This document shows positions 1 through 13,827 of a DNA stretch of 64,000 nt, piece after piece. The number at the start of each line of letters is the position of its first letter. The stretch's first letter is position 1. This DNA is from a virus. The notes below the pieces were generated by a model. That model made no database searches, was not told the origin of the DNA, and saw nothing but the letters and a program-made list of their open reading frames with translations. The DNA is taken from positions 36,744 to 100,743 of the IMG/VR virus record IMGVR_UViG_3300020477_001447; one strand, 5' to 3'. The position numbers and the translations under genes were made by a program.

Positions 1-1
1 A

Positions 2-1165
2 TATCAGTTTGTAAGTTTTGGTGGAGCAATCAAACATCACGATTATAGACCTACGAGGACTGAAGAGTTTGGCGATGATTGGATTATATATCCAGTTGAT
101 GGTTATGGAGATCAAGATTCTATTAGATCGGTAATCTGGACAGAGAAGCCAGACGTTTTATGGTTTATGACAGACCCTAGGTTTTGGGGCTGGCTTTGGC
201 AGATTGAAAATGAGATTAGAGCAAACGTGCCGATGGTCTATTACCACGTTTGGGATAATAGGCCCTATCCTAATTTTAATAAAAGTTTCTACGACTCTAA
301 TGACAACATAGCGTGCATATCAAAGCTTACATATGAGGTTGTGCAAAATGTTTCACCGGATGTAGAATCGTCATACTTACCACACACTGTGAACACCGAA
401 ATCTTTAAAAAGCTCGATCCGGAGGTCATTGAACAATTCAGAGAAACTAGTATACCACTTGAATACGAGCCAAACCGGGACAGAGTTTTGTTTTTTTGGA
501 ACAATCGAAATGCTAGAAGGAAACAGTCTGGCACTGTAGTCTGGTGGTTTAAAGAATTTCTAGACATTGTTGGTCACAATAATGCTGCGCTTATAATGCA
601 CACAGAAACTGACGATGTACATGGTCAAGACTTGGAAGCTATTTCCCGCGAGCTTGGGTTAAACAATGGTCAGTTGGTTTTCTCCAGACAAAAGGTGCCA
701 GCAGAAAACTTAGCCTTGGCTTACAACATGTGTGATTGTACTATTAATATTGCCGATGCGGAAGGTTTTGGTTTAGCGACTTTAGAGTCTTTAGCCTGCG
801 AAGTGCCAATTATTGTGACAATGACTGGTGGCCTACAGGAGCAAGTTACTGACGGAGAGAACTGGTTTGGTTTTGGTCTTGAGCCTGCAGCAAAAGCTAT
901 AATTGGCTCCCAGGAGGTGCCATACATCTATGAAGATCGTGTATCAAAAGAGGACTTTTTAGATGCAATGGTTAAGTTTTATAATATGACTAAAGAAGAA
1001 AGAGCGAAAATGGGTGCTGCTGGTAGAAATCACGTACTAACAAATTATTCTTTTGAAAAATATAGAACCAATTGGGACAACCTTTTTACCAAAGTGCATG
1101 AGGAATGTGGCTCCTGGGCTACGCGAAAGAATTACCAGTCTTGGGAGATGAAGGAAATAAAATGA
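2..1165 (+). CDS. Glycosyltransferase, GT4-like, 5'-truncated by window edge
   Basis: The reading frame is open from base 2, well before the first ATG at 167, and the codons before that ATG encode plausible protein (for example DDWIIYPVDGYG). The gene therefore starts outside the window. The visible 387 residues look like a GT-B glycosyltransferase. The nucleotide-sugar binding half carries the segment EGFGLATLESLACEVP, which matches the E-x7-E motif region of family GT4, followed by a VTMTGGLQEQV loop. GT4 enzymes transfer a sugar from a nucleotide donor, usually with retention. The gene ends in an ATGA overlap with the next glycosyltransferase, so it opens the visible part of a sugar-modification operon. 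Donor and acceptor cannot be read from the sequence. Confidence 0.85.
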   Translation, partial: YQFVSFGGAIKHHDYRPTRTEEFGDDWIIYPVDGYGDQDSIRSVIWTEKPDVLWFMTDPRFWGWLWQIENEIRANVPMVYYHVWDNRPYPNFNKSFYDSNDNIACISKLTYEVVQNVSPDVESSYLPHTVNTEIFKKLDPEVIEQFRETSIPLEYEPNRDRVLFFWNNRNARRKQSGTVVWWFKEFLDIVGHNNAALIMHTETDDVHGQDLEAISRELGLNNGQLVFSRQKVPAENLALAYNMCDCTINIADAEGFGLATLESLACEVPIIVTMTGGLQEQVTDGENWFGFGLEPAAKAIIGSQEVPYIYEDRVSKEDFLDAMVKFYNMTKEERAKMGAAGRNHVLTNYSFEKYRTNWDNLFTKVHEECGSWATRKNYQSWEMKEIK

Positions 1166-3246
1166 GAAAAAAGATATTAGTTAAAGGCCCAGCCTTATCT
1201 CGTTCTGGGTATGGAGAGCAAACACGGTTTGCACTACGCTCCCTTCGCAGTCAAGAAGAAAAATATGATATTTATCTACAAAATATTCCGTGGGGTCAAA
1301 CTGGGTGGATTTTTGATGATAACGAAGAGCGCACTTGGATTGATGCTTGTTTGGCTAAAAGTGTAGAATATGTTGCAGCAGGCGGCAAGTTCGACATGTC
1401 ATTACAGGTTACAATACCAAATGAGTGGGAAAAATTAGCACCAGTGAACATAGGATATACTGCCGGGATAGAAACAAATCAAATTTCACCAGCATGGATT
1501 GAAAAGACTGAAGTAGTTGATAAGATCATAACAATTTCAGAACACTCTAAGGATGGATTCCTAAACACAGTATATGATGTACAAAATAAAGAAACTGGCC
1601 AAGTAGTAAAGGGTTACAGGTGTGAAACACCAGTAGAGGTGGTACACTATCCAGTACGAAACGTTAAGCCGGCGAAACTAGATCTAGAACTAGAAAATGA
1701 TTTTAACTTTTTAGTTTTAGCTCAGTGGGGTGTTAGAAAAAACCTAGAAAATACAATACGTTGGTTTGTTGAAGAGTTTATTGATAGAGATGTTGGCTTG
1801 GTTATTAAGACTAATGCCGCAAATGACTCTATTATGGACAGAGACCACTGCGAAAAAAGATTACAAGAGCTTTTGAGTGAGTATGAAAATAGGCAGTGCA
1901 AGGTTTATATGATCCACGGCACAATGAAAGAAGATGAGCTGGCTGGTCTTTACAATCATCCTAAAATAAAAGCACTAATATCACTGACGCACGGTGAAGG
2001 CTACGGCTTGCCAATTTTTGAAGCCGCGTATTATGGTCTTCCAGTTATAACCGCTGGTTGGTCCGGACACGTTGATTTCTTATCAGCTCCGGTTAAAGAG
2101 AAGAACAAAAAAGTTAAAGTTAAGCCACTTTATGCAAAGGTAGACTTTGATGTAAAACGTATTCAAAAAGAAGCTCGCTGGGAAGGTGTTATTGAGAAAA
2201 GGTCTGAATGGTGTTACCCGCGAGAAGGCAGCGCAAAGATGCGCATGCGCGAGGTTTATAAAAGTCATGGAAGATTTAAGAGCAATGCACGAAAACTACA
2301 ATCGTGGATCTTAGAAAATTTCACAGAAGAACAGAAGTATGAGCAATTTGCTAATGCTGTTTGTGACGAGAAGATTGATTTAGACTGTGATTATGTTTTT
2401 GTTAGTGACAGATTTGCTGATCAGGCCCCTGGCGGCGCAGAGTTAAGTTTTCAGGCTGTTATAGATACAGCCCCCGGAAAACATCTAAAACTAAACGCCT
2501 CAGATGTTAGTGAAAGCTTAATAGATACATTAAAAGATAAAACTTGGATTTTCTCTAATTTTACAGCGATGGATAAATCCCTCGTTCCAAAGATCGCAGA
2601 AAACCTGAAGTATTACTTTATAGAATCAGATTATAAATACTGTGAACATAGATTACCACAGCTGTGTCAGATCTTCAATGGTGGAGAGGACTGCGTTTGT
2701 GTCGAAAAGGACTCAGGTCAGTTGATTAAATTGTTCTGTGATAACGCACAGTTGTTGTTTTTCCGTTCCGAGAACCAACGCGCACATCACTTAAGTGCTC
2801 TGGATCTAAAAAAGAAGGACACTAGGATCATGTCTGCGGTCTTTACGGACGATGTATTAAATTATATTCAAGCATTGCGCAAGGAATTTCTTAATAAGAA
2901 AGTAGATGTGTGGGTTGTCAGTTCTTCGCCTTCGTGGGTTAAGGGACATCAGGCTTCGAAGAAGTGGTGTGAAGAAAACAACAAACAAGTATTTGAGCTA
3001 CATGGTAAGTCTTATAAGGAATCCCTTGCTTGTTTAGCACAGGCCCGCGGCCTCTGCGCACTCCCGCCAGGGTATGATACTTGTCCACGAATGGTTATTG
3101 AAGCGAAGTTGTTGGGTTGTGAACTGCAGTTAAACGAGAACGTTTTGCATGCTGATGAAAAGTGGTTCGCTACAGATGACATTGAAGCAATAGAAGCACA
3201 CTTAAGATCAGTGGTGCCAACATTCTGGAAGGAAGTTTCAGTTTAA
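1162..3246 (+). CDS. Two-domain glycosyltransferase (tandem GT4-like modules)
   Basis: I chose ATG 1162 (MRKKILVKGPALS) because it overlaps the upstream stop as ATGA and is preceded by an AAGGA box; an in-frame ATG at 1105 would add 19 poorly fitting residues. The 694-residue product has an N-terminal GT-B module (about residues 1-400). Its motif HGEGYGLPIFEAAYYGLP is a classic GT4 E-x7-E region. A second, shorter GT-like module covers about residues 415-694. There the equivalent stretch is YDTCPRMVIEAKLLGC, which resembles the motif of the protein encoded at 4592. The protein may add two sugars in sequence or carry one degenerate binding domain. It is predicted to be cytoplasmic, with no signal peptide or membrane segment visible. 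Confidence 0.8.
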   Translation: MRKKILVKGPALSRSGYGEQTRFALRSLRSQEEKYDIYLQNIPWGQTGWIFDDNEERTWIDACLAKSVEYVAAGGKFDMSLQVTIPNEWEKLAPVNIGYTAGIETNQISPAWIEKTEVVDKIITISEHSKDGFLNTVYDVQNKETGQVVKGYRCETPVEVVHYPVRNVKPAKLDLELENDFNFLVLAQWGVRKNLENTIRWFVEEFIDRDVGLVIKTNAANDSIMDRDHCEKRLQELLSEYENRQCKVYMIHGTMKEDELAGLYNHPKIKALISLTHGEGYGLPIFEAAYYGLPVITAGWSGHVDFLSAPVKEKNKKVKVKPLYAKVDFDVKRIQKEARWEGVIEKRSEWCYPREGSAKMRMREVYKSHGRFKSNARKLQSWILENFTEEQKYEQFANAVCDEKIDLDCDYVFVSDRFADQAPGGAELSFQAVIDTAPGKHLKLNASDVSESLIDTLKDKTWIFSNFTAMDKSLVPKIAENLKYYFIESDYKYCEHRLPQLCQIFNGGEDCVCVEKDSGQLIKLFCDNAQLLFFRSENQRAHHLSALDLKKKDTRIMSAVFTDDVLNYIQALRKEFLNKKVDVWVVSSSPSWVKGHQASKKWCEENNKQVFELHGKSYKESLACLAQARGLCALPPGYDTCPRMVIEAKLLGCELQLNENVLHADEKWFATDDIEAIEAHLRSVVPTFWKEVSV

Positions 3247-3247
3247 T

Positions 3248-4000
3248 ATGACAGATCCTCATTTTAAAATTGTTACATCGATGTACAATGTTGAAAGCTG
3301 GATCAAAAGAACAGCGTTGAGCGTCAAGAATCAAAATTATACAAACTTTCAATGTGTGTTTGTTGATGACGCCTCCACTGACAAAACTGTTGAGATCTTA
3401 GAGGAGCTTGTTGGGGACGATGACAGATTCGCAATTCTTAAGAATTCGGATAAGAAATATTCCCTAGGAAGAATATACGAGGGTATAGAACACGCTAAGC
3501 CACAAGATGAAGATATTATTCTCAGTGTAGACGGGGATGACTGGTTAGCAACAAAGAACGTTTTAACTTACCTTAAGGACTTCTACGAGAAGGAACAATG
3601 CTGGATGACCTACGGAAGCTACATGGAGTTTCCAACTGGTATGAAGGGAATTGAAGCTTCTGCCTACTCTCCTGCGGTTATTCAAAGTAACACATATCGT
3701 ACTGATCGTTGGCGAGCATCCCATTTAAGAACATTTAAATACAAGCTTTGGAAGAATATCAAGAAAGAAGATCTCTTAGATTGGAATGGGGATTTCTTTA
3801 AAACAACTATTGACAAAGCATTTATGTACCCTATGTTAGAGATGTCGGGTGACCGCGCCAAGTATATCGATGAGATACTTTATGTGTATAACTTGACCAA
3901 TCCGCTTAATGTCCACAAAGCGCGCAGAGATCTGCAATTAAAAACAAATGATTATTTGAGAGGTAAAAAGGCATATGACCGCAAAGACGTACTGCATTAA
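3248..4000 (+). CDS. Glycosyltransferase family 2 (GT-A fold)
   Basis: The 250-residue product starts directly in a GT-A nucleotide-binding domain. FVDDASTDKTVEIL (residues 38-51) is the typical GT2 UDP-sugar binding segment, and VDGDDW (94-99) contains the acidic DxD-type metal-binding motif. GT2 enzymes transfer a sugar from a nucleotide donor with inversion. No C-terminal membrane segment is visible, so it is likely soluble. The start lies one base after the upstream stop, behind a GGAAGGAAG purine box about 12 bases away. The downstream methyltransferase overlaps its last 26 bases. The acceptor is unknown. Confidence 0.85.
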   Translation: MTDPHFKIVTSMYNVESWIKRTALSVKNQNYTNFQCVFVDDASTDKTVEILEELVGDDDRFAILKNSDKKYSLGRIYEGIEHAKPQDEDIILSVDGDDWLATKNVLTYLKDFYEKEQCWMTYGSYMEFPTGMKGIEASAYSPAVIQSNTYRTDRWRASHLRTFKYKLWKNIKKEDLLDWNGDFFKTTIDKAFMYPMLEMSGDRAKYIDEILYVYNLTNPLNVHKARRDLQLKTNDYLRGKKAYDRKDVLH

Positions 4001-4595
4001 AGAAGGATATGTTACGAGAGACGAATATATCCAGAATATACAAATAGGATCTGGAGACAAGTTTCAAGATCGAGTATACGCAAAGGCTCGCGAAGTTTGT
4101 GAGCGCAATAACTGCATGACTGTTTTAGATATTGGATGCGGATCTGGCTATAAACTGATAAAATATTTTAGTGATAAAATTTTTTTAGGATTAGAACTAG
4201 AGCCAAACTTAAGTTGGCTCAAAGAAACTTACCCACACTATCACTTTCAACTCTCTGACTTCGACAACCCTCCCGGTGGTCGTTTTGATTTGGTTATTTG
4301 CTCTGATGTTATTGAACACCTTTTAGATCCGGATCAATTATTAGAGTTTGTACAAAAATTAAATTTTGGTACGTTTGTAGTTTCCACTCCGGAGAGGGAT
4401 AACATGCAGTTATTACAAAAAGGATTTACCTGGGATGGACCTCCTCATAACCAGTATCACGTTAGAGAGTGGACAGAGGATGAATTTGAACAGTACATTT
4501 CTGAAACATTTAACATACAAGAACAAGTATTAACAAAAGGCGAAGAGGTCAGCACAGTAAATGAATGTCAGATCGTTGTTGCAACTAGAAAATGA
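3975..4595 (+). CDS. SAM-dependent methyltransferase (class I)
   Basis: The 206-residue product has the class I methyltransferase signature VLDIGCGSG (residues 50-58). An acidic residue pair follows at the end of strand 2 (LGLELEPN), and FDLVICSDVIEHLLDPD near residue 103 resembles the Methyltransf_11/23 families. Such enzymes methylate small molecules or sugar hydroxyls using S-adenosylmethionine. ATG 3975 follows an AAAAGG box by five bases and overlaps the upstream glycosyltransferase by 26 bases, while its stop overlaps the next start as ATGA. The position inside a glycosyltransferase operon suggests capping or decoration of a glycan by O-methylation; the substrate is an inference. Confidence 0.8.
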   Translation: MTAKTYCIKEGYVTRDEYIQNIQIGSGDKFQDRVYAKAREVCERNNCMTVLDIGCGSGYKLIKYFSDKIFLGLELEPNLSWLKETYPHYHFQLSDFDNPPGGRFDLVICSDVIEHLLDPDQLLEFVQKLNFGTFVVSTPERDNMQLLQKGFTWDGPPHNQYHVREWTEDEFEQYISETFNIQEQVLTKGEEVSTVNECQIVVATRK

Positions 4596-5500
4596 AAATC
4601 TTTTTAGATAATGTAAATCTGAATTCAACTAGTGGGCCAAACCACTTTGGTACAAAACTAAACAAGTATATTAGTCGTCTTGGTGCGACTTGCACAACTA
4701 ATCTTGATGAATCAAGTTTGGATGTACAGCTGTCATTTATTGAATCAATTCAAAATTCTAATTTGCCATTAGTTCAAAGATTAGATGGTATCTATTTTGA
4801 TATTGATACTGATAACAAACTCATGAATTCAAATTTACAGAAAACATACGAGAATTCTGCAGGTGTTATATTCCAGTCTGAATACTGCAGAGACTTATGT
4901 TTTAAATATTTAGGTGCGCATGATAACCATACTGTCATTCATAATGGCGCAGACTATGAGTTGATTGATGAGATAGAACCTCTTCAAGATTCGCTCCTTG
5001 ATAAGTTTGATACAGTTTGGACCTGTGCCAGCCGTTGGCGACCTTGGAAGCGATTAAGGCAAAATGTTGAATATTTTATTAATTTTTCTGGAGAGAACGA
5101 TTGCTTAGTAGTTGCCGGTAACCCCCCCGACGATGAGGTGGTAAAGCACAACAGAGTGTTCTATGTGGGGCGCTTACCTGTTGACATACTGTTTTCTTTA
5201 TATAAGAGGTCTAAGTATTTTATACACTTAGCAAGATATGACGCTTGTCCAAACGTTGTTGTTGACGCAAGAGCTAGTGGGTGTCAGATTATTTGTTCTT
5301 CGCTGGCTGGAACTAAAGAGGTCGCCGGCCCAAATGCTTTGGTAGTTGAAGATGTGCCGTGGGACTTAGAGCCCGTCAGCACATCACGAATACCAGATAT
5401 TAAGTTTGATAATGTAACAAAGAACACATACAATACAAATATTGATATGACCTTTGTTGCAAAAAATTACTTAAACTTTTTACAAAAAACTTTACAATAG
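4592..5500 (+). CDS. Glycosyltransferase, GT4-like with altered motif
   Basis: The 302-residue protein has a GT-B-like layout. It includes an N-terminal acceptor domain, a linker with VIHNGADYELID, and a donor domain with TCASRWRPWKRL and VFYVGRLP. The usual E-x7-E motif is changed to YDACPNVVVDARASGC, with aspartates where glutamates are expected. The same YDxCP pattern occurs in the C-terminal half of the two-domain transferase encoded at 1162, so the two may share ancestry. Start and upstream stop overlap as ATGA. Assignment to a glycosyltransferase is fairly safe; the reaction is unknown, and the changed catalytic motif leaves activity open. Confidence 0.75.
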   Translation: MKIFLDNVNLNSTSGPNHFGTKLNKYISRLGATCTTNLDESSLDVQLSFIESIQNSNLPLVQRLDGIYFDIDTDNKLMNSNLQKTYENSAGVIFQSEYCRDLCFKYLGAHDNHTVIHNGADYELIDEIEPLQDSLLDKFDTVWTCASRWRPWKRLRQNVEYFINFSGENDCLVVAGNPPDDEVVKHNRVFYVGRLPVDILFSLYKRSKYFIHLARYDACPNVVVDARASGCQIICSSLAGTKEVAGPNALVVEDVPWDLEPVSTSRIPDIKFDNVTKNTYNTNIDMTFVAKNYLNFLQKTLQ

Positions 5501-5507
5501 GATTATT

Positions 5508-6356
5508 ATGTTACTACAAAAACAAGTTGATAAATTTATCATGAATTTGAATGTCGCTGATGGCGGCATTTCTAATGTTCTCTATCACGTTGGTGAGAGA
5601 GAATTGGCATTTATGTCTCTTTTGCGCGAAACCGTTGAAGAGGGAATGACATGCGTGGACCTAGGAAGCAATATTGGTTATACAACCCTTTTTATGCTAG
5701 ACAAGGTGGGTGAAACGGGCAGGGTGTATGCTATTGAACCCGATCCAAACAACCTAGGGCTTCTGCAAAGCAACATACGCCAAAATAATTACACCTCTAT
5801 ATGCGAGGTTACGCAGTGTGCAATATCAGATACAGATGGTCAGTTAGATTTCTGGCAGGCTAGTGCTCCAAACTTGAGCAGTATTACTAAGCACAAGAAC
5901 AGCACCCATAAGATTACAGTTGATTCATTCTGTCTTAACACTTTCTTATCTAGTCGTGAATATCCAAACTTTCTTAAGATGGATGTTGAAGGCGGGGAAG
6001 TTAAGATCTTTGAAGGAGGTTTAGACTATTTTACCAAAAATAGAGGTACAACTCATTTCTTGGTGGAGGTCCACCCAGCAACTTATAATGAAGAGAATGA
6101 TTTTGAAGCAATCCTAAAAAAGTATTTCGAAATAGGATTTAGCCCAAAGTATGTTGTAACAACTCCAGTTCCGCAACCTACCTTGTTCGCAGAGGCCGGA
6201 TACACACCTGCCCGTACTGTAGAAACAGATGGATTTCATCGTGGAGTATATGACGATATATCAAATGAGCACTTGTTAGAGTTTGCCTGCAGGGAGCACC
6301 AAGAGGGTCGCAGTAAGAAGATCGTTAGAAGTTTCATGCTTTCACGCGAGGAATAG
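5508..6356 (+). CDS. FkbM-family methyltransferase
   Basis: The 282-residue protein carries the FkbM-type class I methyltransferase core. It has CVDLGSNIGYTT (residues 49-60) for S-adenosylmethionine binding, AIEPDPNN (75-82), and the family-typical FLKMDVEGGE (155-164). FkbM enzymes O-methylate sugars, polyketides and other hydroxyls, and are frequent in bacterial glycan loci. An AGGA box sits seven bases before the ATG. This is the second methyltransferase of the cassette, so two positions of the product glycan could be methylated. Residues after about 230 do not match the core and could shape the substrate pocket. Confidence 0.85.
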   Translation: MLLQKQVDKFIMNLNVADGGISNVLYHVGERELAFMSLLRETVEEGMTCVDLGSNIGYTTLFMLDKVGETGRVYAIEPDPNNLGLLQSNIRQNNYTSICEVTQCAISDTDGQLDFWQASAPNLSSITKHKNSTHKITVDSFCLNTFLSSREYPNFLKMDVEGGEVKIFEGGLDYFTKNRGTTHFLVEVHPATYNEENDFEAILKKYFEIGFSPKYVVTTPVPQPTLFAEAGYTPARTVETDGFHRGVYDDISNEHLLEFACREHQEGRSKKIVRSFMLSREE

Positions 6357-6362
6357 CTTTAA

Positions 6363-7055
6363 ATGTATTTTGAAAAAGGCTTGAATGATTTTGGTATTGT
6401 TCTGAAGGGGGCTAGTGTAGCGAGGTTACCAAAGATAGTTGATAACTATCAAGATTGCTACATGGTTAATAATTTTGATCGCAATGCGGACAACAATGAC
6501 TCTGAGTGGACCTTAGTAGCCCCCTTGCTCTCTGGTAAGAACGTTGCTCATTTTGTCAATAGACTAGAGACAGCACCGCTTTTAAAAGAACATTATGAAG
6601 AATTAAATATTAAGCACATTCAATTTACAAAAACCCAACTAGATCAGCGCCTATCCGACATGAAAGGTTTGTACGAAAGTTATAACCTAACCTGTCACAC
6701 ACTCCCAGAGGAACTGTTAGAATATAACAGTTTCTTTACGGACAAATACTATATGCGACCCGGGGACTCCAACTACGCGGAGAAGCATCCAAATACTGGT
6801 GTACTATCAATTATTTACGCAGCTCATATTTTAAAACCTAAAAACTTATGGATAGCTGGTTTAGATTTTTATCAAAACGATTATCTTTTCCGACGACCGT
6901 GGATTGCACCATTGAAAAATCAGCAGTTAAAAATGAGAAATACTCAAATGGTAGAACATTTTGTAGAGGTAATAAAAAAGCATCCAGACATCAATTTTAA
7001 AATGATTACAAATGCGAATCTGCCTCCATTGCAAAATTTGGAGATTATAGAATGA
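6363..7055 (+). CDS. GT42-like (CstI/CstII-type) sialyltransferase candidate
   Basis: The 230-residue protein resembles bacterial GT42 sialyltransferases such as Campylobacter CstII, from memory of that family. An N-terminal segment VLKGASVARLP followed by YMVNNF matches the CMP-binding GxGxS and RCNQF region. A later stretch NTGVLSIIYAAHILKPKN leads into LWIAGLDFYQND, paralleling the family's GVYMCAVAIALGYKEIYLSGIDFYQN region. GT42 enzymes transfer sialic acid from CMP-sialate to galactose or sialic acid acceptors. The adjacent cytidylyltransferase and NeuB-like genes support this substrate class. A GAGGAA box precedes the start. It could instead be a DUF115-type relative with another donor. 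Confidence 0.6.
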   Translation: MYFEKGLNDFGIVLKGASVARLPKIVDNYQDCYMVNNFDRNADNNDSEWTLVAPLLSGKNVAHFVNRLETAPLLKEHYEELNIKHIQFTKTQLDQRLSDMKGLYESYNLTCHTLPEELLEYNSFFTDKYYMRPGDSNYAEKHPNTGVLSIIYAAHILKPKNLWIAGLDFYQNDYLFRRPWIAPLKNQQLKMRNTQMVEHFVEVIKKHPDINFKMITNANLPPLQNLEIIE

Positions 7056-7828
7056 CAATTCAAAATTTTTTAGAAAAGATTAAGCCGAATAAAGAATACA
7101 ATGATTATCTTAGTGGTAAGCGGGTGGCGATTGTCGGCCCATCAAAACATATGTTGGCTTATGATGCCGGCACCTTAATTGATGATTATGATGTGGTTAT
7201 TCGAATGAAGTGGGTAGATATCCTACCTTTGGCAGAACACTGTGATGGAAAATATGTCAAGCATGTTGGCAGCAAGACAGACGTTGTTTATGGCAACAGG
7301 TTCTTAATTGTCAACAATATGATGCAGGAGTATTTGGAATACTTTAAAAAATCAGGCATTGATCATTATAGGATCCCTGATAATAAAATTTCAAATCACT
7401 TCTTTTCGAAAGACTTAGCTTGCGGAACAACATATACAGAGTATTCTTGCGGAGAGTTTGGTGTACAATACCAGCAATCACTAGGAACTTCAGATACAAG
7501 ATATTGGCCGCAAACAGGAACAGTAGCGATCATGGAAGCAATTGCTAGTGATGCCGCCGAGGTTTTTATTAGTGGCATAACAATGTATCATGGCGGGGGT
7601 CACATTTTTCAAAAGAATAAAAACCCAACTCACAATCAACCGATAGTTGGAAAACATCACGGCGTGCTAGAATTATCAATGTTGATAGATTGTTTTGATC
7701 TGCCAGAAAATCAGGGGAGAATAAGGGTTGATGAATTTTTGTACAATATTATGAACTTTCATAAGCAAGGCACCCCAACAAAAGAGATTACAAAGATTAT
7801 AAATAAGCGTGTAAATGATTTGGTATGA
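7052..7828 (+). CDS. GT29-like sialyltransferase with L, S and VS sialylmotifs
   Basis: The 258-residue protein carries what look like the three sialylmotifs of family GT29. Motif L spans residues 24-75: RVAIVGPSKHM, then TLIDDYDVVIRM, then KHVGSKTDVVYG. It parallels the vertebrate pattern of CAVVGNSGNL, DSHDxVxRMN and DVGSKTTH. Motif S is near 153-180, with PQTGTVAIMEAI and AAEVFISGITMY. Motif VS appears as H202-x4-E207 (HHGVLE), where the histidine acts as catalytic base in this family. GT29 enzymes transfer sialic acid from CMP-sialate. No membrane anchor is visible, unlike the eukaryotic Golgi enzymes. It overlaps both neighbours by ATGA junctions and directly precedes a CMP-sialate-synthetase-like gene. 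Confidence 0.7.
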   Translation: MTIQNFLEKIKPNKEYNDYLSGKRVAIVGPSKHMLAYDAGTLIDDYDVVIRMKWVDILPLAEHCDGKYVKHVGSKTDVVYGNRFLIVNNMMQEYLEYFKKSGIDHYRIPDNKISNHFFSKDLACGTTYTEYSCGEFGVQYQQSLGTSDTRYWPQTGTVAIMEAIASDAAEVFISGITMYHGGGHIFQKNKNPTHNQPIVGKHHGVLELSMLIDCFDLPENQGRIRVDEFLYNIMNFHKQGTPTKEITKIINKRVNDLV

Positions 7829-8502
7829 TAGGCAACAAAAAAGTTTTAGCAGTCACCCTCGCCCGCGGTGGCTCGAAAAAGATTCCAAGAAAAAACATAA
7901 TAGATATTAATGGAAAGCCTCTGTTGGGCTACACAACAGAAGTAGTACAAAAAAGCAAGTATGTTGATGCGCATATCGTGTCGACAGATGATACAGAAAT
8001 ATCTATTGTAGCACAATTGTGTGGAGCCTCAGTACATATGAGAGATCCATCTTTAGCCTTAGACACTACAACTTCTGCTGCAGCACTTTTAGATGTGGCA
8101 AAAAAACATCCAGATTACGACTATGTGGTTGAAGTAATGGCAACAAATCCATTAAAAACCACAGAAGACCTTGACAACGTAATAAAAAAGCTTTATGATA
8201 CTGGTGCAGACTCTGTTGTGTCGGTGGTTAGAATATGGGACCAGCACCCTTCTAGAGTTAAATATATTAAGGACGATAAGCTAATGGACTTTTATCCAGA
8301 AATACCAGAGTCCCGCCGGCAGGATTTGACACCAGCAGCGTATGTTCGCAATGGCAGTATCTATGCAACAACTATGAAATCATTTTTGGAGCACAAAGTT
8401 CGTTTAGGTCCGGACACGCGACCACATATTATGTCAGAAGAGAACACAATTAACATTGATGAGCCTAGGGATTTAGAATTAGCGAGAATTTTATTAAAAT
8501 GA
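7825..8502 (+). CDS. neuA: CMP-sialic-acid-synthetase-like cytidylyltransferase
   Basis: The 225-residue protein has the N-terminal nucleotide-binding signature LARGGSKKIPRKNI (residues 12-25) of the NeuA/KdsB cytidylyltransferase fold. The segments IVSTDDTEIS and VVEVMATNPLKTTED are typical of acylneuraminate cytidylyltransferases. The C-terminal INIDEPRDLELA is the usual NeuA ending. The enzyme couples CTP to a nonulosonic acid to give the CMP-sugar donor used by sialyltransferases. The length fits the single-domain bacterial enzymes. It overlaps the GT29-like gene upstream and the dehydrogenase gene downstream by ATGA junctions. The exact sugar (sialic, legionaminic, pseudaminic or another) cannot be decided. 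Confidence 0.85.
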   Translation: MIGNKKVLAVTLARGGSKKIPRKNIIDINGKPLLGYTTEVVQKSKYVDAHIVSTDDTEISIVAQLCGASVHMRDPSLALDTTTSAAALLDVAKKHPDYDYVVEVMATNPLKTTEDLDNVIKKLYDTGADSVVSVVRIWDQHPSRVKYIKDDKLMDFYPEIPESRRQDLTPAAYVRNGSIYATTMKSFLEHKVRLGPDTRPHIMSEENTINIDEPRDLELARILLK

Positions 8503-9431
8503 AAATTATATGCATAACTCCAATCACAGACACGATGATGGAAAACCTCCAGAGCCGCGGCAGCGTAACATATTGTCCAAATATTAACAAAAACGACCTG
8601 TCAGTTGCTCTACAAGAGGGTTATGACGTAATCTTTACCAACCCTAACAAGCAGGGGTTTATGCTCGATAAAGAGCTTCTGGGGCCCTCTAGCGTGTCTG
8701 TTATATGTACAGCATCCACTGGGACGAACCATATTGACAAAAAATACTGCGAAAGTAACGATATTACTGTGCTTTCCATAACGACTGATTATCACTTACT
8801 CAGGAAAATTACATCTACAGCTGAGCACTCTTTTGGGCTTATGTTATCGTTATTGAGAAATGTCCCCCGCGCACAGCAGTCTGTATTAGATGGTGGCTGG
8901 AACTGGGAGCCCTTTTTGGGCCGACAAATTAATTCATTAAAAGTTGGAATTGTTGGCTTTGGCCGCCTAGGCGAAATGATGGCTCACTACTGTGACTCAT
9001 TCGGCGCCGGCGTTTATATACATGATCCTTATAAGAGTTCTAAATTTAGATATATGCAGTCTCAGTCGTTGGAATCTTTGTTTAAAACATGCGACGTTGT
9101 TTCTTTACATGTACATGTCACAGATGAGACGCGACATTTTATTAACAAAGAGCTATTGCAAAATATAACATCTCCTGTATACTTGATTAACACCTCTCGC
9201 GGAGAAGTTGTTGATGAAAAAGATATTGTATCTATGTTAGAATCAGGTAAACTAGCCGGCTATGCTACAGATGTTGTTGAAAACGAATTTGACAATATTA
9301 ACGATAGCCCGATCATCCAACGAATGGATGATCTAAACATCATTGTAACTCCACATATTGGTGGAATGACTAGTGACGCAAGAGAGTTGGCTTATAATGG
9401 AGCGATTAACAAATTGGAGAATTTAACATGA
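8499..9431 (+). CDS. D-isomer-specific 2-hydroxyacid dehydrogenase
   Basis: The 310-residue protein has the family's full layout. The NAD-binding Rossmann motif GIVGFGRLG is at residues 150-158. The catalytic arginine lies in NTSRGE (R234), and the catalytic histidine in PHIGG (H286). Family members reduce 2-keto acids or oxidise 2-hydroxyacids with NAD(H); phosphoglycerate dehydrogenase is the best-known case. It lies between a NeuA-like and a NeuB-like gene with ATGA-type overlaps. A role in modifying or supplying the nonulosonic acid or its three-carbon precursor is plausible but inferred. The absence of an ACT domain argues against plain serine biosynthesis. Confidence 0.85.
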   Translation: MKIICITPITDTMMENLQSRGSVTYCPNINKNDLSVALQEGYDVIFTNPNKQGFMLDKELLGPSSVSVICTASTGTNHIDKKYCESNDITVLSITTDYHLLRKITSTAEHSFGLMLSLLRNVPRAQQSVLDGGWNWEPFLGRQINSLKVGIVGFGRLGEMMAHYCDSFGAGVYIHDPYKSSKFRYMQSQSLESLFKTCDVVSLHVHVTDETRHFINKELLQNITSPVYLINTSRGEVVDEKDIVSMLESGKLAGYATDVVENEFDNINDSPIIQRMDDLNIIVTPHIGGMTSDARELAYNGAINKLENLT

Positions 9432-10231
9432 CAGAAATTATTGCTGAAATTGGTTGGAACCATATGGGAGATTTAGAACTAGCAGAAACTATGATCCGCG
9501 CCGCTGCAGAAAATGGTGCGACGTATGCTAAGTTTCAAACTTGGTCTGTTTCGAGACTAAAAGATGGTGAGTGGAATCTAGATGGCCGTCGCCAAATCTA
9601 CGAGAATGCAGAGCTGTCTGCAGACGACCATGTTAGTTTGATTAACCTTTGCGATAAGCATGGGATTAAATTTCTATCTTCAGTATTTAGCGTGCCTGAT
9701 GCGGAGTTGTTAGTCGGTTTAAACCAAACTCATGCTGTTAAAATTCCAAGCTTTGAGTGTAGGAACGTCGAGCTAGTTGATTATTGTAATGAGCACTTTG
9801 AGAAGGTTTATATGTCCACAGGTACATCAAAGTGGGCAGAGTTGAGGGAGATGGTACCTAGGATTAATAAAGCTGAGCTTGTTTTACTTCATTGTGTATC
9901 ATCCTACCCATGTGAGCCAAACATGGCAAACATTTCAAAGTTGACAGATTTGAAGGAACTGTGTCCACGAATTGGCTATAGCGATCATATTATGGGTGTT
10001 GAGTCTGCAAAGGTTGCTTTGGCTTATGGTTTGAATGTAGTTGAGAAACACTTTACAGTAGACCATGATCTTCCAGGCAGGGATAATAAATTTGCGATAT
10101 TGCCCGAGGAGTTAGGTGATTTGTCAAGTTTTATTAAGCTGGTTGACCAGATGCATGAGTATCATGGTCTAGACTATCAGCCGGCTGAAGAGGGTGCAAG
10201 AAATGAATACTCAGGTAGGTTCAATGGCTGA
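9428..10231 (+). CDS. neuB: NeuB-like sialic acid synthase, short form without SAF domain
   Basis: The 267-residue protein matches the TIM-barrel domain of N-acetylneuraminate synthases. It has EIGWNHMGDLELAETMI near the N-terminus, AKFQTW, the VYMSTGTS strand, LLHCVSSYP, IGYSDH and VVEKHFTVD, all hallmark segments. NeuB condenses phosphoenolpyruvate with an N-acetylmannosamine-type sugar. Typical enzymes are near 340-350 residues and end in an SAF (antifreeze-like) domain that helps bind substrate across the dimer. Here the chain stops just after the barrel. GGAG precedes the ATG. It could be a shortened active synthase, or a relative with a different aldose substrate. Confidence 0.8.
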   Translation: MTEIIAEIGWNHMGDLELAETMIRAAAENGATYAKFQTWSVSRLKDGEWNLDGRRQIYENAELSADDHVSLINLCDKHGIKFLSSVFSVPDAELLVGLNQTHAVKIPSFECRNVELVDYCNEHFEKVYMSTGTSKWAELREMVPRINKAELVLLHCVSSYPCEPNMANISKLTDLKELCPRIGYSDHIMGVESAKVALAYGLNVVEKHFTVDHDLPGRDNKFAILPEELGDLSSFIKLVDQMHEYHGLDYQPAEEGARNEYSGRFNG

Positions 10232-10868
10232 CAATCTTTCTATTATTATTCGAAATAGAAATGAAGAAAACTGGATAGGTTATGCGATCCAGTCTTGTTT
10301 GGACACGTTTAATGATCCGGAGATCATAATTGTTGATAACAACTCAATTGATCAATCTATGGAAATCGTTAATGAATTCTGTTTTTCAAACATCAAAATA
10401 ATGCAAATTGATAATTATTCTCCGGGGCGGTCACTTAACATGGCAGTTCGCGCTGCATCGAATGATACAATCTTAGTTTTATCTGCACATAGCGTTATTA
10501 CAAGGCCCATTAATTTAGATCGAGTTAAATCGAACTTAAGACAGCATGCCGCTGTATTTGGAAAGCAGACGCCCGTATATAGGGGCCGTAAGATTACAAA
10601 ACGGTATGTGTGGTCCCACTTCACAGATGAATCTGTAGTCAACATGTGGTCTGATGCAGAGGAAAGACACTTTTTACACAATGCTTTTTGTTTTTATGAT
10701 AAAAGCGTTCTATTAGAGAATAAATTTGATGAGAGACTTTCTGGTAAAGAAGACCGCTATTGGGCTAACAAGGTTGTTTCTCGTGGTTTCACGTATTTGT
10801 ATGATGTTGAATTGCAGTGTGACCACCACTGGACCCCAGCCGGAAACACATGGAAGGGCTTAGGCTAG
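10224..10868 (+). CDS. Glycosyltransferase family 2
   Basis: The 214-residue protein begins with the GT2 fold (LSIIIRNRNEENWIGYAI) and has IIIVDNNSIDQS at about residues 34-45, the nucleotide-binding aspartate region. I chose ATG 10224 because the domain starts immediately after it and AGG boxes lie four and eight bases upstream. ATG 10203 and GTG 10194 are in-frame alternatives that would lengthen the overlap with the NeuB-like gene. The sequence LSGKEDRYWANKVVSRGF near residue 175 resembles the acceptor-side ED motif of this family. Acceptor and donor are unknown. Confidence 0.8.
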   Translation: MADNLSIIIRNRNEENWIGYAIQSCLDTFNDPEIIIVDNNSIDQSMEIVNEFCFSNIKIMQIDNYSPGRSLNMAVRAASNDTILVLSAHSVITRPINLDRVKSNLRQHAAVFGKQTPVYRGRKITKRYVWSHFTDESVVNMWSDAEERHFLHNAFCFYDKSVLLENKFDERLSGKEDRYWANKVVSRGFTYLYDVELQCDHHWTPAGNTWKGLG

Positions 10869-11431
10869 TGAGAATAGTCGCTTTTATTCCAGCTAAAGGC
10901 AACTCGCGTAGGCTAAAGGGTAAAAACATATACCCTTTGAAGGAAAAACCTCTTATATGTTGGACTTTGGACGCAATAAAACAGTCAAAGTATCTAAATG
11001 AGACTTATATTTCAACAAATAGTGAGGAAATTGCTAATATTTCTTTACTTTATGGGTTTAATGTTATTCATCGACCGGATAGCCTAGCCTTAGAAAGTGT
11101 TGGAAAACAACAGGTTTTAGAACATGCATTGTCGGAAATAGAGAAGTCTGGAAAAGTAGACTATATTTGCATGTTACAGGCCAACTCTCCACAGATTGAA
11201 GCTTGTAAAATAGACGAAGCTATTGAAAAAGTAGCACATTCAAACGGAGAAGTTTGGGAATGCTTGTCAATTAACAAGGAAACTTTGTTCACTGATGGCG
11301 CTATAAGAGTTTTTAATACAGATTGTGTATCCCGCCTAGGGTTGGGAATGTACATAAGTGCAGTTCTTACAGATTATATTGATGTACACACAATCGAAGA
11401 TATTAACACCCTAGAAAAGATGGATTTCTAA
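10850..11431 (+). CDS. Second NeuA-like cytidylyltransferase
   Basis: This 193-residue protein is a second member of the acylneuraminate cytidylyltransferase fold. It has FIPAKGNSRRLKGKNIYPL near the N-terminus, TYISTNSEEIANIS, and YICMLQANSP where NeuA has its substrate strand. It ends in DVHTIEDINTLEKM, matching the usual metal-binding tail. It is shorter and clearly divergent from the first copy at 7825, so it may activate another sugar acid. ATG 10850 overlaps the upstream gene by 19 bases. GTG 10868, overlapping the upstream stop as TAGTG behind a GGAAGGG box, is an equally good start. Confidence 0.75.
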   Translation: MEGLRLVRIVAFIPAKGNSRRLKGKNIYPLKEKPLICWTLDAIKQSKYLNETYISTNSEEIANISLLYGFNVIHRPDSLALESVGKQQVLEHALSEIEKSGKVDYICMLQANSPQIEACKIDEAIEKVAHSNGEVWECLSINKETLFTDGAIRVFNTDCVSRLGLGMYISAVLTDYIDVHTIEDINTLEKMDF

Positions 11432-11434
11432 AGA

Positions 11435-12094
11435 ATGTATAAAGTAACAGTTGGCATATGTTGCTATCGACAAGATGATTGGGTGTATCGATGCCTTCGA
11501 AGTTTAGCATCCCAGACCTTGAGCAAAGACCATTTTGAGGTTGTTCTAGTCGATGACAACGAAGTGCCGAGTCAAAAATTACAAGATGTTTGTACAGCAA
11601 TGGGTGATGTACTTAATGTAAGGCTTATACAGAACAAGAAAAATATGGGCTTACCCACATCATTAAATAATATTTTAAAGACTGCTCGTGGCAAGTATTT
11701 TGTTAGAGTTGATTCAGATGACTATGTTTCTAGACACTTTCTATACATGCTATCAACCATGTTGGAAATGAACAGGAGCTATCAAGCGGTTTGCTGTGAT
11801 TATATGAAAGTAGATCATGTTGGCCAGAAGCTAGGGTATTATGATTCTTTTTCAGAACCAATTGCTTGTGGCGTTATGTTTAGTTATGAAGCTTTGTGTT
11901 CGTTAAATTTTTACAATGAAGAATACAAAATGCGCGAGGGCCATGAGCTATTGGAGAGGTTCCAAAAAAAATATTCTATGTATCACTTAAAAGCTCCGCT
12001 ATATCGGTATAGAATACATGAAGAAAACAGAACAAACAACGTTGATAAAGTAGCTTATTACGATTCAAAACTTAAGGGAGAACAAGATGGCTAG
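11435..12094 (+). CDS. Glycosyltransferase family 2
   Basis: The 219-residue protein shows a standard GT2 GT-A core: VGICCYRQDDWVYRCL at the start, VVLVDDNE (residues 36-43), NMGLPTSLNNIL, and RVDSDDYV (91-98) containing the DxD motif. Near the end, MREGHELLERF is compatible with the family's ED-type acceptor motif. It starts three bases after the second cytidylyltransferase gene and overlaps the epimerase gene by eight bases, so it belongs to the same operon. It is the last recognisable glycosyltransferase of the cassette. The sugar it transfers is unknown. Confidence 0.85.
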   Translation: MYKVTVGICCYRQDDWVYRCLRSLASQTLSKDHFEVVLVDDNEVPSQKLQDVCTAMGDVLNVRLIQNKKNMGLPTSLNNILKTARGKYFVRVDSDDYVSRHFLYMLSTMLEMNRSYQAVCCDYMKVDHVGQKLGYYDSFSEPIACGVMFSYEALCSLNFYNEEYKMREGHELLERFQKKYSMYHLKAPLYRYRIHEENRTNNVDKVAYYDSKLKGEQDG

Positions 12095-12962
12095 ATGTTT
12101 AGTGACCGGACACCGCGGTTATATTGGTACAAAATTGGTACAAGAGTTAGAGCGCCAAGGACACGAAGTCTTAGGTATTGATCTACAGGATGGTAAAGAT
12201 GTAATAGATGAGCTGCAAGAACACACGGATGGAAAGTTTCACCCACATTACACTAATTTTAAACCAGAGTATTTGTTTCATTTAGCTTGTATCCCTAGGG
12301 TTGCATATAGTGTAGAGCAGCCAGTGGAGACGATGCAAAACAACGTGATGGCAACAAGTGTTGCTTTAAACTTCGCGCGCAAGAATGGAGTAAAGAGGTT
12401 TATTTATTCTAGTTCATCTTCTGTTCGGGGCAACGGGAACGGCCCAGTCAGCCCATATGCATTACAGAAATACACATCAGAGCTAGAAGTGGGAATGTAT
12501 AGTGCTCTTTATGGCACGATGGACACTGTGTCTCTTCGATATTTTAATGTTTATTCTCACGATCAGGAAGCATCTGGCCCATATGCAACTGCAGTTGCGG
12601 CATACATGAAAGCTGTCCGTGATGGTACCACTCCTCATATTACTGGAGACGGAGAGCAGCGGAGAGATATGTCTCATGTCTTAGATGTTGTTTCTGCGAA
12701 CATATTTGCTATGAATTTCGATATGAATTTTTGTGGCCAATTTTTTGATGTAGGCACCGGAGACAATATCTCCTTGAATCAAATAAAAAATATTGTACAA
12801 AAGCATCATCCTCATGTAAAATTTGATTATGTCGAAGAACGCGCTGGAGATGTTCGCTTAACGAAGGCTGATATGACACCACTAGAAGAGCTAGGGTGGA
12901 CGCCCGACTGGAACATCTATGACGGTATTGAGGACTGTTTTGAGAGAACAAAAGTAGGATAA
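12087..12962 (+). CDS. NAD-dependent epimerase/dehydratase (extended SDR)
   Basis: The 291-residue protein is an extended short-chain dehydrogenase/reductase acting on nucleotide sugars. The NAD-binding motif GHRGYIG is at residues 8-14. The catalytic serine region SSSSS is near 108-112, and the YxxxK pair is Y124/K128 in PYALQK. RYFNVYSHDQ and QRRDMSHVLDV are typical for GalE-, RmlB- and WbpP-like enzymes. Such enzymes epimerise or dehydrate UDP- or dTDP-sugars. A strong AAGGGAG box precedes the ATG. Its neighbour is a UDP-glucose-dehydrogenase-like gene, so the two may act in sequence on one nucleotide sugar, for example via a uronic acid; that pairing is inference. Confidence 0.88.
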   Translation: MARCLVTGHRGYIGTKLVQELERQGHEVLGIDLQDGKDVIDELQEHTDGKFHPHYTNFKPEYLFHLACIPRVAYSVEQPVETMQNNVMATSVALNFARKNGVKRFIYSSSSSVRGNGNGPVSPYALQKYTSELEVGMYSALYGTMDTVSLRYFNVYSHDQEASGPYATAVAAYMKAVRDGTTPHITGDGEQRRDMSHVLDVVSANIFAMNFDMNFCGQFFDVGTGDNISLNQIKNIVQKHHPHVKFDYVEERAGDVRLTKADMTPLEELGWTPDWNIYDGIEDCFERTKVG

Positions 12963-12963
12963 G

Positions 12964-13827
12964 ATGAAAGAAGAAATTGGTATAATAGGAAACGGATTTG
13001 TTGGCTCCGCAATTGCTGCCGGCTTTAGTTTGCATGCAGATGTGAAAGTTTACGATGTAGATCCAACGAGGTCAACGCACAATATGCGAGACACTATCAA
13101 TGAATCCAATGTCATCTTTGTTTCTGTTCCAACGCCTATGACGACTGCCTTGGGTGGCGAGATTGATACATCAATCATGGATGGCGTTTTCGAACAAATC
13201 TCTTTGTTAAATAAGCGAAAAGACAATATTTTTGTTGTAAAATCTACAGTTATTCCGGGTACTGTTGAACGATATATTGATAAGTATCCCGAGTTGAATA
13301 TTGTGTTCAGCCCAGAGTTTTTAACAGAACGCGCCGCCCGATTTGATTTTATTAACTCATCCAGGGTTATTTTAGGTGGAACAAAAGAACTAACTGAACG
13401 AGTTGAGATGGCAATGAGGACTCGGTTCCCATATGTTAGAATTATCCACACAGATGTTACAACCGCGCAGTTTATCAAATATATGGCGAACTGCTTTTTT
13501 GCTACAAAGGTATCCTTTATGAATGAAATGAGGCAAGGTGCTGACAAATTAAATGTTAATTGGCAAGATGCCATGCTTGGTTTTATTACAGATGGAAGAA
13601 TTGGAAACTCCCACATAGATGTCCCAGGCCATGACGGGAGTCTTGGCTTCGGAGGGAAATGCTTTCCAAAAGACTTGAATGCATTTATTGAAATGTTTCA
13701 CGAAAATGAAGTGGAGCCAACAGTTATGAAAGCTGTTTGGAACAAGAATTTAGAAGTTAGAGATGATTTGGACTGGACTAAGATTGAAGGTGCGGTCACT
13801 AAAAAAAAGAAAAGGAATTCAAAATGA
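12964..13827 (+). CDS. UDP-glucose/GDP-mannose dehydrogenase-like, C-terminally short
   Basis: The 287-residue protein has the nucleotide-sugar 6-dehydrogenase layout. The NAD motif GIIGNGFVGSA is at residues 6-16, SVPTP at 54-58 and KSTVIPGT at 93-100. The central-domain lysine is in FIKYMANCFFATKVSFMNE (K172), and the catalytic cysteine is C233 in GFGGKCFPKD. These enzymes oxidise the C6 alcohol of UDP-sugars to the uronic acid using two NAD. Typical members exceed 380 residues and end in a third, UDP-binding domain. Here only about 40 residues follow the catalytic cysteine loop, so that domain is missing. The tail is lysine-rich (TKKKKRNSK). Activity on UDP-sugars is therefore uncertain. 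Confidence 0.82.
   Translation: MKEEIGIIGNGFVGSAIAAGFSLHADVKVYDVDPTRSTHNMRDTINESNVIFVSVPTPMTTALGGEIDTSIMDGVFEQISLLNKRKDNIFVVKSTVIPGTVERYIDKYPELNIVFSPEFLTERAARFDFINSSRVILGGTKELTERVEMAMRTRFPYVRIIHTDVTTAQFIKYMANCFFATKVSFMNEMRQGADKLNVNWQDAMLGFITDGRIGNSHIDVPGHDGSLGFGGKCFPKDLNAFIEMFHENEVEPTVMKAVWNKNLEVRDDLDWTKIEGAVTKKKKRNSK

What the first reader, a model, noticed from the sequence alone, without database searches (positions are those of the whole stretch)
6363..11431. Sialic-acid-type biosynthesis and transfer cassette in a phage
In about 5 kb there are a GT42-like and a GT29-like transferase, a NeuA-like synthetase, a 2-hydroxyacid dehydrogenase, a NeuB-like synthase, a GT2 enzyme and a second NeuA-like gene, nearly all overlapping by a few bases. 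Synthase, activator and transferases together suggest a self-contained nonulosonic acid pathway. The N-acetylmannosamine-forming epimerase is not seen; it may be upstream of the window or supplied by the host.
Basis: partly seen in the sequence, partly recalled or inferred. Interest (0 to 1): 0.85.

Follow-up and report, generated by a model that had tools for sequence, protein, structure and literature searches.

The report
Phage cassette for sialic-acid-like sugar
A T4-like phage, assembled from metagenome data and most like marine relatives, carries intact genes to build, activate and attach a sialic-acid-like sugar; the sugar-making enzyme belongs to an uncharacterised short branch of its family, and one attaching enzyme belongs to the family that sialylates animal glycoproteins, a family that has been described mainly from animals and other eukaryotes.

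Summary
At 6363-11431 seven intact, tightly packed genes encode an unassigned transferase-like protein ('gtA'), a GT29 sialyltransferase-family protein, a PseF/NeuA-like cytidylyltransferase, a 2-hydroxyacid dehydrogenase, a NeuB-family synthase, a GT2 and a short second cytidylyltransferase. They lie in a larger sugar block (1-13827) of a T4-like phage. Relatives in other viral contigs keep the genes under strong purifying selection.

The interpretation needs three corrections. (1) The synthase is not ordinary NeuB: it has 267 aa, lacks the SAF domain, and belongs to a 100/100-supported clade shared with Pelagibacter, SAR86 and Prochlorococcus, with fixed substitutions at two substrate-side positions. 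The dehydrogenase is linked to this clade, not to full-length NeuB. The product is probably a non-canonical CMP-activated ulosonic acid, not shown to be Neu5Ac. (2) The pathway is not self-contained: no NeuC-type epimerase exists in the 100.7-kb record. (3) GT42 is unproven for gtA, but its viral homologues accompany NeuB genes.

GT29 is firmly supported. GT29+NeuB/NeuA clusters recur in other viral contigs, including a 484-kb phage with at least five GT29 genes. I found no published description of phage GT29-NeuB-NeuA cassettes in the library available. The acceptor is unknown.

The parts
1..1165 (+). GT4-like glycosyltransferase; starts upstream of the window (full gene L003:18637-19908)
   Evidence: ORF open at the window start; full length; GT assignment by reading only, no family scan
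1105..3246 (+). GT4-family glycosyltransferase, 713 aa
   Evidence: Pfam Glycos_transf_1 E 3e-6, above cut-off
3248..4000 (+). probable GT2-type glycosyltransferase
   Evidence: ORF; homologue in L083; family by reading only
3975..4595 (+). SAM methyltransferase
   Evidence: Pfam Methyltransf_23 E 6e-13
4592..5500 (+). GT4-family glycosyltransferase; travels with gtA
   Evidence: Pfam Glyco_trans_1_4 E 8e-8; near gtA in L083, L084, L086, L087 and L142
5508..6356 (+). FkbM-type methyltransferase
   Evidence: Pfam Methyltransf_21 E 9e-20; conserved beside gtA in viral relatives
   Evidence: no Pfam, NCBIfam, PHROG or PDB hit; S-sialylmotif-like segment only (hhalign probability 11%); found with a NeuB gene in five further viral records and one bacterium
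7052..7828 (+). GT29 sialyltransferase-family protein
   Evidence: Pfam GT29 above cut-off; the leading PDB matches of the phage family profile are all sialyltransferases; L, S and VS sialylmotifs conserved
7825..8502 (+). PseF/NeuA-like cytidylyltransferase, full length (neuA1)
   Evidence: Pfam CTP_transf_3 2e-25; best NCBIfam model PseF 5e-40 but below its cut-off
8499..9431 (+). D-isomer-specific 2-hydroxyacid dehydrogenase
   Evidence: Pfam 2-Hacid_dh_C 2e-48; linked to short NeuB
9428..10231 (+). short SAF-less NeuB-family synthase, 267 aa
   Evidence: Pfam NeuB 3e-52; active-site map; tree
10194..10868 (+). GT2-family transferase; lies near the short NeuB in most loci
   Evidence: Pfam GT2 1e-15; present near short NeuB in 42 of 68 loci
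10850..11431 (+). second, C-terminally short cytidylyltransferase (neuA2), 193 aa
   Evidence: Pfam CTP_transf_3 4e-19, profile 2-120 of 217; a neuA2-like gene is the one found beside neuB in L015-L019 and L027
11435..12094 (+). GT2-family transferase
   Evidence: Pfam GT2 1e-18
12087..12962 (+). SDR nucleotide-sugar epimerase/dehydratase
   Evidence: Pfam Epimerase 3e-39; PHROG nucleotide-sugar epimerase
12964..13827 (+). UDP-sugar 6-dehydrogenase lacking the usual C-terminal domain
   Evidence: Pfam UDPG_MGDP_dh_N and central domain only; PHROG UDP-glucose dehydrogenase

Best explanation
This is a maintained phage cassette that makes and attaches a sialic-acid-like (CMP-activated 3-deoxy-ulosonic) sugar during infection. 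Proposed steps: (1) the host, possibly helped by the phage SDR and UDP-sugar dehydrogenase, supplies an aldose; (2) the short NeuB condenses it with phosphoenolpyruvate; (3) the 2-hydroxyacid dehydrogenase adjusts the substrate or a substituent (exact reaction unknown); (4) one or both cytidylyltransferases make the CMP-sugar; (5) the GT29 protein, and probably gtA, transfer it in the cytoplasm to a glycan started by the phage GT4/GT2 enzymes. The acceptor is either a virion protein or a host lipid-linked oligosaccharide that the host then exports, changing the surface that phages see. Shown by sequence: families, catalytic residues, conservation, gene linkage, selection. Inferred: product, reaction order, acceptor, biological role.
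For: Families are clear. Synthase residues corresponding to Neisseria NeuB E25, K53, Q55, K129, E134, S154, Y186, S213, H215, H236 and D247 are invariant in 12 family members (the roles of these residues are from memory). The leading PDB matches of the GT29 profile are sialyltransferases (porcine ST3Gal1 3e-7, ST6GalNAc2 5e-4, CstII 2e-3), and across 19 viral GT29 sequences the VS-motif histidine is invariant. NeuA lies near neuB in 20 and GT2 in 16 of 21 viral loci, and the dehydrogenase lies within 1.5 kb in 19 of 21. The same dehydrogenase association is seen for 17 of 47 short cellular NeuB genes but 0 of 33 full-length ones. Other viral contigs combine GT29 with NeuB and/or NeuA (13 of 18 GT29 loci found by an L-motif pattern). 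gtA homologues accompany a different NeuB subtype in five further viral records. Purifying selection. No TM-like segments in cassette proteins and no polytopic protein in 21 viral loci, against 19 of 51 cellular loci.
Against: No product, donor specificity or expression is known. No aldose-forming enzyme of a known nonulosonic acid route is encoded. The dehydrogenase has no defined step in any pathway known to me. The window's GT29 protein aligns to the Pfam model only over its L-motif half. NeuA2 is C-terminally short. The record is linear and may be incomplete. The chemistry could be transfer of a sugar acid other than a nonulosonate.
Confidence: 0.66

Rival explanations
1. Ordinary Neu5Ac pathway: the host supplies ManNAc, the phage NeuB makes Neu5Ac, NeuA makes CMP-Neu5Ac and GT29/gtA transfer it.
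For: All conversion and transfer families are present; GT29 relatives use CMP-Neu5Ac (PMC10225777).
Against: The synthase lacks the SAF domain that supplies N-acetyl-binding residues in the Neisseria enzyme (from memory); N74 is replaced by R in all 12 and N184 by S in all 12; it is a separate 100/100 clade; Neptuniibacter, SAR86, Prochlorococcus and Synechococcus genomes carry a full-length or fused NeuB as well as the short one; no NeuC.
Confidence: 0.15
2. The product is a different 2-keto-3-deoxy acid, such as a Kdo- or Kdn-like sugar or a sugar acid carrying an unusual substituent made by the dehydrogenase, used for host envelope remodelling rather than virion decoration.
For: Cytidylyltransferases also score against KdsB models; the same genes occur in marine bacteria, often with polytopic proteins nearby as expected for surface-polysaccharide regions; pelagimyophages carry LPS-type genes interpreted as host O-chain modification (PMC7029224).
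Against: Synthase is NeuB-type, best models NeuB/PseI; best cytidylyltransferase model is PseF; sialyltransferase-family partner.
Confidence: 0.2
3. Passing host cargo: a fragment of a bacterial surface-polysaccharide cluster with no current function in the phage.
For: Close functional counterparts in Pelagibacter, SAR86 and cyanobacteria.
Against: Strong purifying selection and intact ORFs between relatives with saturated synonymous sites; several viral lineages keep the set; GT29 absent from the 27 bacterial genomes tested with the same synthase and gtA absent from the fetched short-NeuB cellular loci.
Confidence: 0.06
4. DNA-base glycosylation system.
For: T4-like phages glycosylate hydroxymethylated bases (background knowledge).
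Against: No thymidylate synthase/dCMP hydroxymethylase family gene in the record; nucleotide-sugar synthesis genes point to oligosaccharide work.
Confidence: 0.03

Closest known systems
Bacterial NeuA-NeuB-NeuC sialic acid clusters (e.g. Moritella viscosa contig FPLJ01000048)
   Same: Synthase plus CMP-activating enzyme in one operon
   Different: Moritella has a 347-aa NeuB, a UDP-GlcNAc 2-epimerase and capsule export genes; the phage has a 267-aa SAF-less synthase, no epimerase, a 2-hydroxyacid dehydrogenase and GT29
Short-NeuB cassettes of Pelagibacter, SAR86, Prochlorococcus (L026-L071)
   Same: Same synthase clade; neuB-GT2-neuA-dehydrogenase linkage
   Different: No GT29 in 27 such bacterial genomes, no gtA in the fetched loci; many loci have polytopic proteins nearby
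GT29 sialyltransferases (animals, plants, protists; bacterial members in Petit et al. 2018, PMC5811610)
   Same: Sialylmotifs L, S and VS
   Different: Phage-borne, about 205-280 aa, no TM-like segment in the window protein; the window branch has a diverged motif III (HIFQ) and is recognised by Pfam only over the L-motif half
GT42 sialyltransferases (CstII)
   Same: GT29 profile of the phages also reaches CstII (E 0.002)
   Different: gtA itself has no detectable sequence match to GT42
484-kb uncultured phage LR756508.1
   Same: NeuB (299 aa, too short for a SAF domain) beside GT29 genes
   Different: At least five GT29 genes; different NeuB type; no annotation in the deposited record
Pelagimyophage LPS-type glycosyltransferase regions (PMC7029224)
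   Same: T4-like aquatic phages with sugar genes, many in the host-recognition region
   Different: No sialic, neuraminate or NeuB terms in that paper
Azotobacter phage TayeBlu putative alpha-2,3/2,8-sialyltransferase (PMC12772287)
   Same: A phage-borne sialyltransferase-like gene
   Different: Mentioned as a single annotated gene, without a synthase cassette in that passage

Membership tests
NeuB family (PF03102) | NeuB (TIM-barrel) domain above the curated cut-off | tested here: met
   E 3e-52, profile 1-235 of 241
NeuB family (PF03102) | PEP- and metal-binding residues (Neisseria K53, K129, S154, S213, H215, H236) | tested here: met
   All conserved; residue roles from memory
Canonical N-acetylneuraminate synthase (TIGR03569) | Score over the equivalog cut-off | tested here: not met
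   182 bits against 399.65
Canonical N-acetylneuraminate synthase (TIGR03569) | C-terminal SAF domain | tested here: not met
   Protein ends at residue 267 right after the barrel; no SAF hit
Canonical N-acetylneuraminate synthase (TIGR03569) | Neu5Ac formation from ManNAc and PEP | not testable with these tools
   Needs enzyme assay
Pseudaminic acid cytidylyltransferase PseF (TIGR03584) | Score over the equivalog cut-off | tested here: not met
   neuA1 137.6 and neuA2 86.8 bits against 205.7
CMP-sugar synthetases (PF02348) | CTP_transf_3 domain above cut-off | tested here: met
   90.2 and 69.8 bits against 22.6
GT29 sialyltransferases (PF00777) | Score above curated cut-off | tested here: met
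   26.3 against 23 bits in the window; 46.3 in L012, 52.9 in L143
GT29 sialyltransferases (PF00777) | Sialylmotifs L, S and VS with the catalytic VS histidine | tested here: met
   All three present; VS histidine invariant in 19 viral sequences
GT29 sialyltransferases (PF00777) | Sialylmotif III | tested here: inconclusive
   Diverged (HIFQ) in the window branch; HYWE or HYF/HYY-type in most other viral members
GT29 sialyltransferases (PF00777) | Fold | tested here: inconclusive
   Model failed, pLDDT 29.5 with only 2 aligned sequences
GT42 (PF06002), for gtA | Sequence match to CST-I or CstII structures | tested here: not met
   None in Pfam or PDB; PF06002 search of the record empty, but its controls were silent too
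GT42 (PF06002), for gtA | GT42 fold | tested here: inconclusive
   pLDDT 72; Foldseek found no convincing PDB match, TMq at most 0.47 among the 50 listed
Complete de novo nonulosonic acid pathway | NeuC-type epimerase (PF02350) or equivalent | tested here: not met
   0 in the 100.7-kb record; other routes to the aldose not excluded

The most novel reading that the evidence does not exclude
Marine phages carry a distinct, independently maintained glycosylation kit in which a SAF-less synthase makes a CMP-activated ulosonic acid not described so far, and soluble phage GT29 enzymes attach it in the cytoplasm to virion proteins. Viral GT29 genes would then be part of the gene pool from which cellular sialyltransferases came.
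Probability: 0.2. Interest if true: 0.85.

Novelty: new variant of a known kind. Interest (0 to 1): 0.62.

Why it matters
Phage sugar genes are usually lone glycosyltransferases or O-antigen modifiers. Here a synthase, an activator and sialyltransferase-family enzymes travel together, recur in several viral lineages, and use a synthase branch shared with some of the most abundant ocean bacteria. This makes three things testable: what acidic sugar Pelagibacter, SAR86 and their phages make; whether phages sialylate their virions or hosts; and whether viruses belong in the history of GT29, whose origin has been traced to bacteria without considering viruses (the main text of PMC5811610 does not mention virus or phage).

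Tried and rejected
GT42 for gtA: Pfam, NCBIfam, PHROGs, PDB sequence search, AlphaFold model plus Foldseek (PDB and viral), and hhalign against phage GT29 all failed to prove it; only the S-motif-like segment and gene neighbourhood speak for a transferase. GT29 fold prediction failed for lack of homologues. PF06002 searches were uninformative because controls were silent. DNA-base modification looked for and not found. NeuC upstream of the window looked for and not found. Host assignment: terminase and portal are nearest to Flavobacterium phage 'immuto' and Microcystis phage Mel-JY01 at 38-44% identity, too distant to name a host. A Moritella contig in the phage collection is bacterial capsule DNA and was not counted as a phage.
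Full report
WHAT IS THERE. The window is bases 36744-100743 of a 100,743-base linear virus record. Terminase, portal, baseplate wedge and late sigma factor families mark it as a T4-like tailed phage. The finding lies in a run of same-strand sugar genes covering window 1-13827, whose first gene starts about 100 bases upstream of the window. The first gene (gtA, 6363-7055) matches no family.

IT IS CONSERVED AND SELECTED. A scan of viral contigs with the synthase returned 20 loci. One contig, a separate 56-kb record, is identical at the synthase; L005-L008 carry the whole block at about 83% synthase identity. Between the window and L005 synonymous sites are saturated (pS 0.73-0.87) while pN is 0.06-0.14 in every gene tested, with no stops. 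Across 21 viral loci a NeuA-type gene lies near neuB in 20 and the GT2 in 16; the dehydrogenase lies within 1.5 kb in 19 and within 5.5 kb in 20.

THE SYNTHASE IS A SEPARATE KIND OF NeuB. It has 267 residues and ends after the barrel, without a SAF domain. It scores 182 bits on the N-acetylneuraminate synthase equivalog against a cut-off of 399.65. Its closest solved relative is the 290-residue chain 6NCS, followed by PseI, SpsE and Neisseria NeuB. Mapped on the Neisseria enzyme, E25, K53, Q55, K129, E134, S154, Y186, S213, H215, H236 and D247 are invariant in 12 family members; N74 is R and N184 is S in all. In a 99-sequence tree the short forms, 47 cellular and 14 viral, form one group with 100/100 support on a branch of 1.25 changes per column, apart from full-length NeuB (the root is a midpoint and the bootstrap had not fully settled). 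Four queried genomes (Neptuniibacter, SAR86, Prochlorococcus, Synechococcus) hold both the short form and a full-length or fused form. The dehydrogenase occurs within 1.5 kb of 17 of 47 short cellular neuB genes and 0 of 33 full-length ones; some cellular loci are contig ends, so 17 is a lower bound, and most of the full-length set comes from one bacterial order. I infer a product other than Neu5Ac. The step of the dehydrogenase is unknown.

THE TRANSFERASES. The window's GT29 protein passes Pfam's cut-off over its L-motif half. Relatives in L012 and L143 match along most of the model, and in L012 GT29 directly follows the dehydrogenase. A six-sequence phage profile searched against the PDB hits sialyltransferases first: porcine ST3Gal1 (3e-7), ST6GalNAc2 (5e-4) and the GT42 enzyme CstII (2e-3). 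GT29 and GT42 have been reported alike in fold and motifs (PMC1508147). Across 19 viral GT29 sequences the VS histidine is invariant. GT29 was found in 6 of 15 viral records and in none of 27 bacterial genomes that hold the same synthase, and in 4 of 200 Pseudomonadota genomes with weak partial matches. For gtA no search proves GT42, but five further viral records with gtA all carry a NeuB gene of another subtype, directly after gtA where the fetched stretch shows it, in the arrangement GT4-FkbM-gtA-NeuB, followed by GT29-NeuA in two. A bacterial gtA homologue (31% identity) also lies in a cluster with NeuB, a HAD phosphatase and a cytidylyltransferase. So the synthase appears to have been exchanged while the transferase backbone stayed.

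HOW WIDESPREAD. A degenerate GT29 L-motif pattern found 34 viral stretches; 18 contain a GT29 ORF, and 13 of these also hold a NeuB and/or NeuA gene in the piece fetched. I did not check the viral nature of each contig. In the deposited phage collection the window's GT29 and gtA find nothing, and the synthase finds three records, of which one is a bacterial contig. One is the unannotated 484-kb phage LR756508.1, with at least five GT29 genes (to 2e-32), four of them within about 4 kb of a 299-aa NeuB.

WHAT IS MISSING. No UDP-GlcNAc 2-epimerase occurs in the record; 2 of 19 related records have one over the cut-off. The aldose must come from the host or from an unrecognised route. No cassette protein has a TM-like segment, and no polytopic protein occurs in 21 viral loci, against 19 of 51 cellular loci (simple hydropathy). 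The phage therefore does not bring its own flippase or polymerase in these stretches; transfer in the cytoplasm to virion proteins, or to host lipid-linked glycans exported by the host, are both open.

NOVELTY. Searches of the open paper library found no description of a phage GT29-NeuB-NeuA cassette; one phage paper mentions a lone putative sialyltransferase (PMC12772287). Subscription papers and preprints were not searchable, so absence is not proof. The kinds of enzyme are known; their combination in phages and the synthase branch are the new part.

Noticed in passing
L154 (LR756508.1, 309194-326809): A 484-kb uncultured phage holds at least five GT29 sialyltransferase-family genes near a SAF-less NeuB; the deposited record has no annotation.
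   Followed up: partly
L083, L084, L086, L087: Related phages keep GT4-FkbM-gtA but carry a different, even shorter NeuB (228-234 aa) after gtA: the synthase appears to have been swapped within the cassette. L086 (G124) has a second NeuB-like gene in tandem (592-aa frame).
   Followed up: partly
L168, L190, L199: Viral GT29 genes followed by a 628-aa frame with a NeuB domain, apparently a fusion with an unidentified partner.
   Followed up: no
L055, L059, L026, L031: Neptuniibacter, SAR86, Prochlorococcus and Synechococcus genomes carry both full-length (or fused) and short NeuB, suggesting two different acidic sugars per cell.
   Followed up: partly
window 12964-13827: The UDP-sugar 6-dehydrogenase lacks the usual C-terminal domain; similar short forms (about 285 aa) recur in related viral loci.
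   Followed up: no
L010:3353, L014:2014: Two related viral contigs do encode a UDP-GlcNAc 2-epimerase inside the sugar cluster; in L014 with a Gfo/Idh oxidoreductase and an SDR upstream of the dehydrogenase, a hint at the missing upstream steps.
   Followed up: partly
L155 (FPLJ01000048.1): Moritella viscosa capsule contig filed in the phage collection; it is bacterial.
   Followed up: yes
L002:16856-18097 and L003:2263-2766: Upstream in the same phage: a class I/II aminotransferase-like ORF and an RfaE-type nucleotidyltransferase-like ORF (read by eye, not scanned).
   Followed up: no
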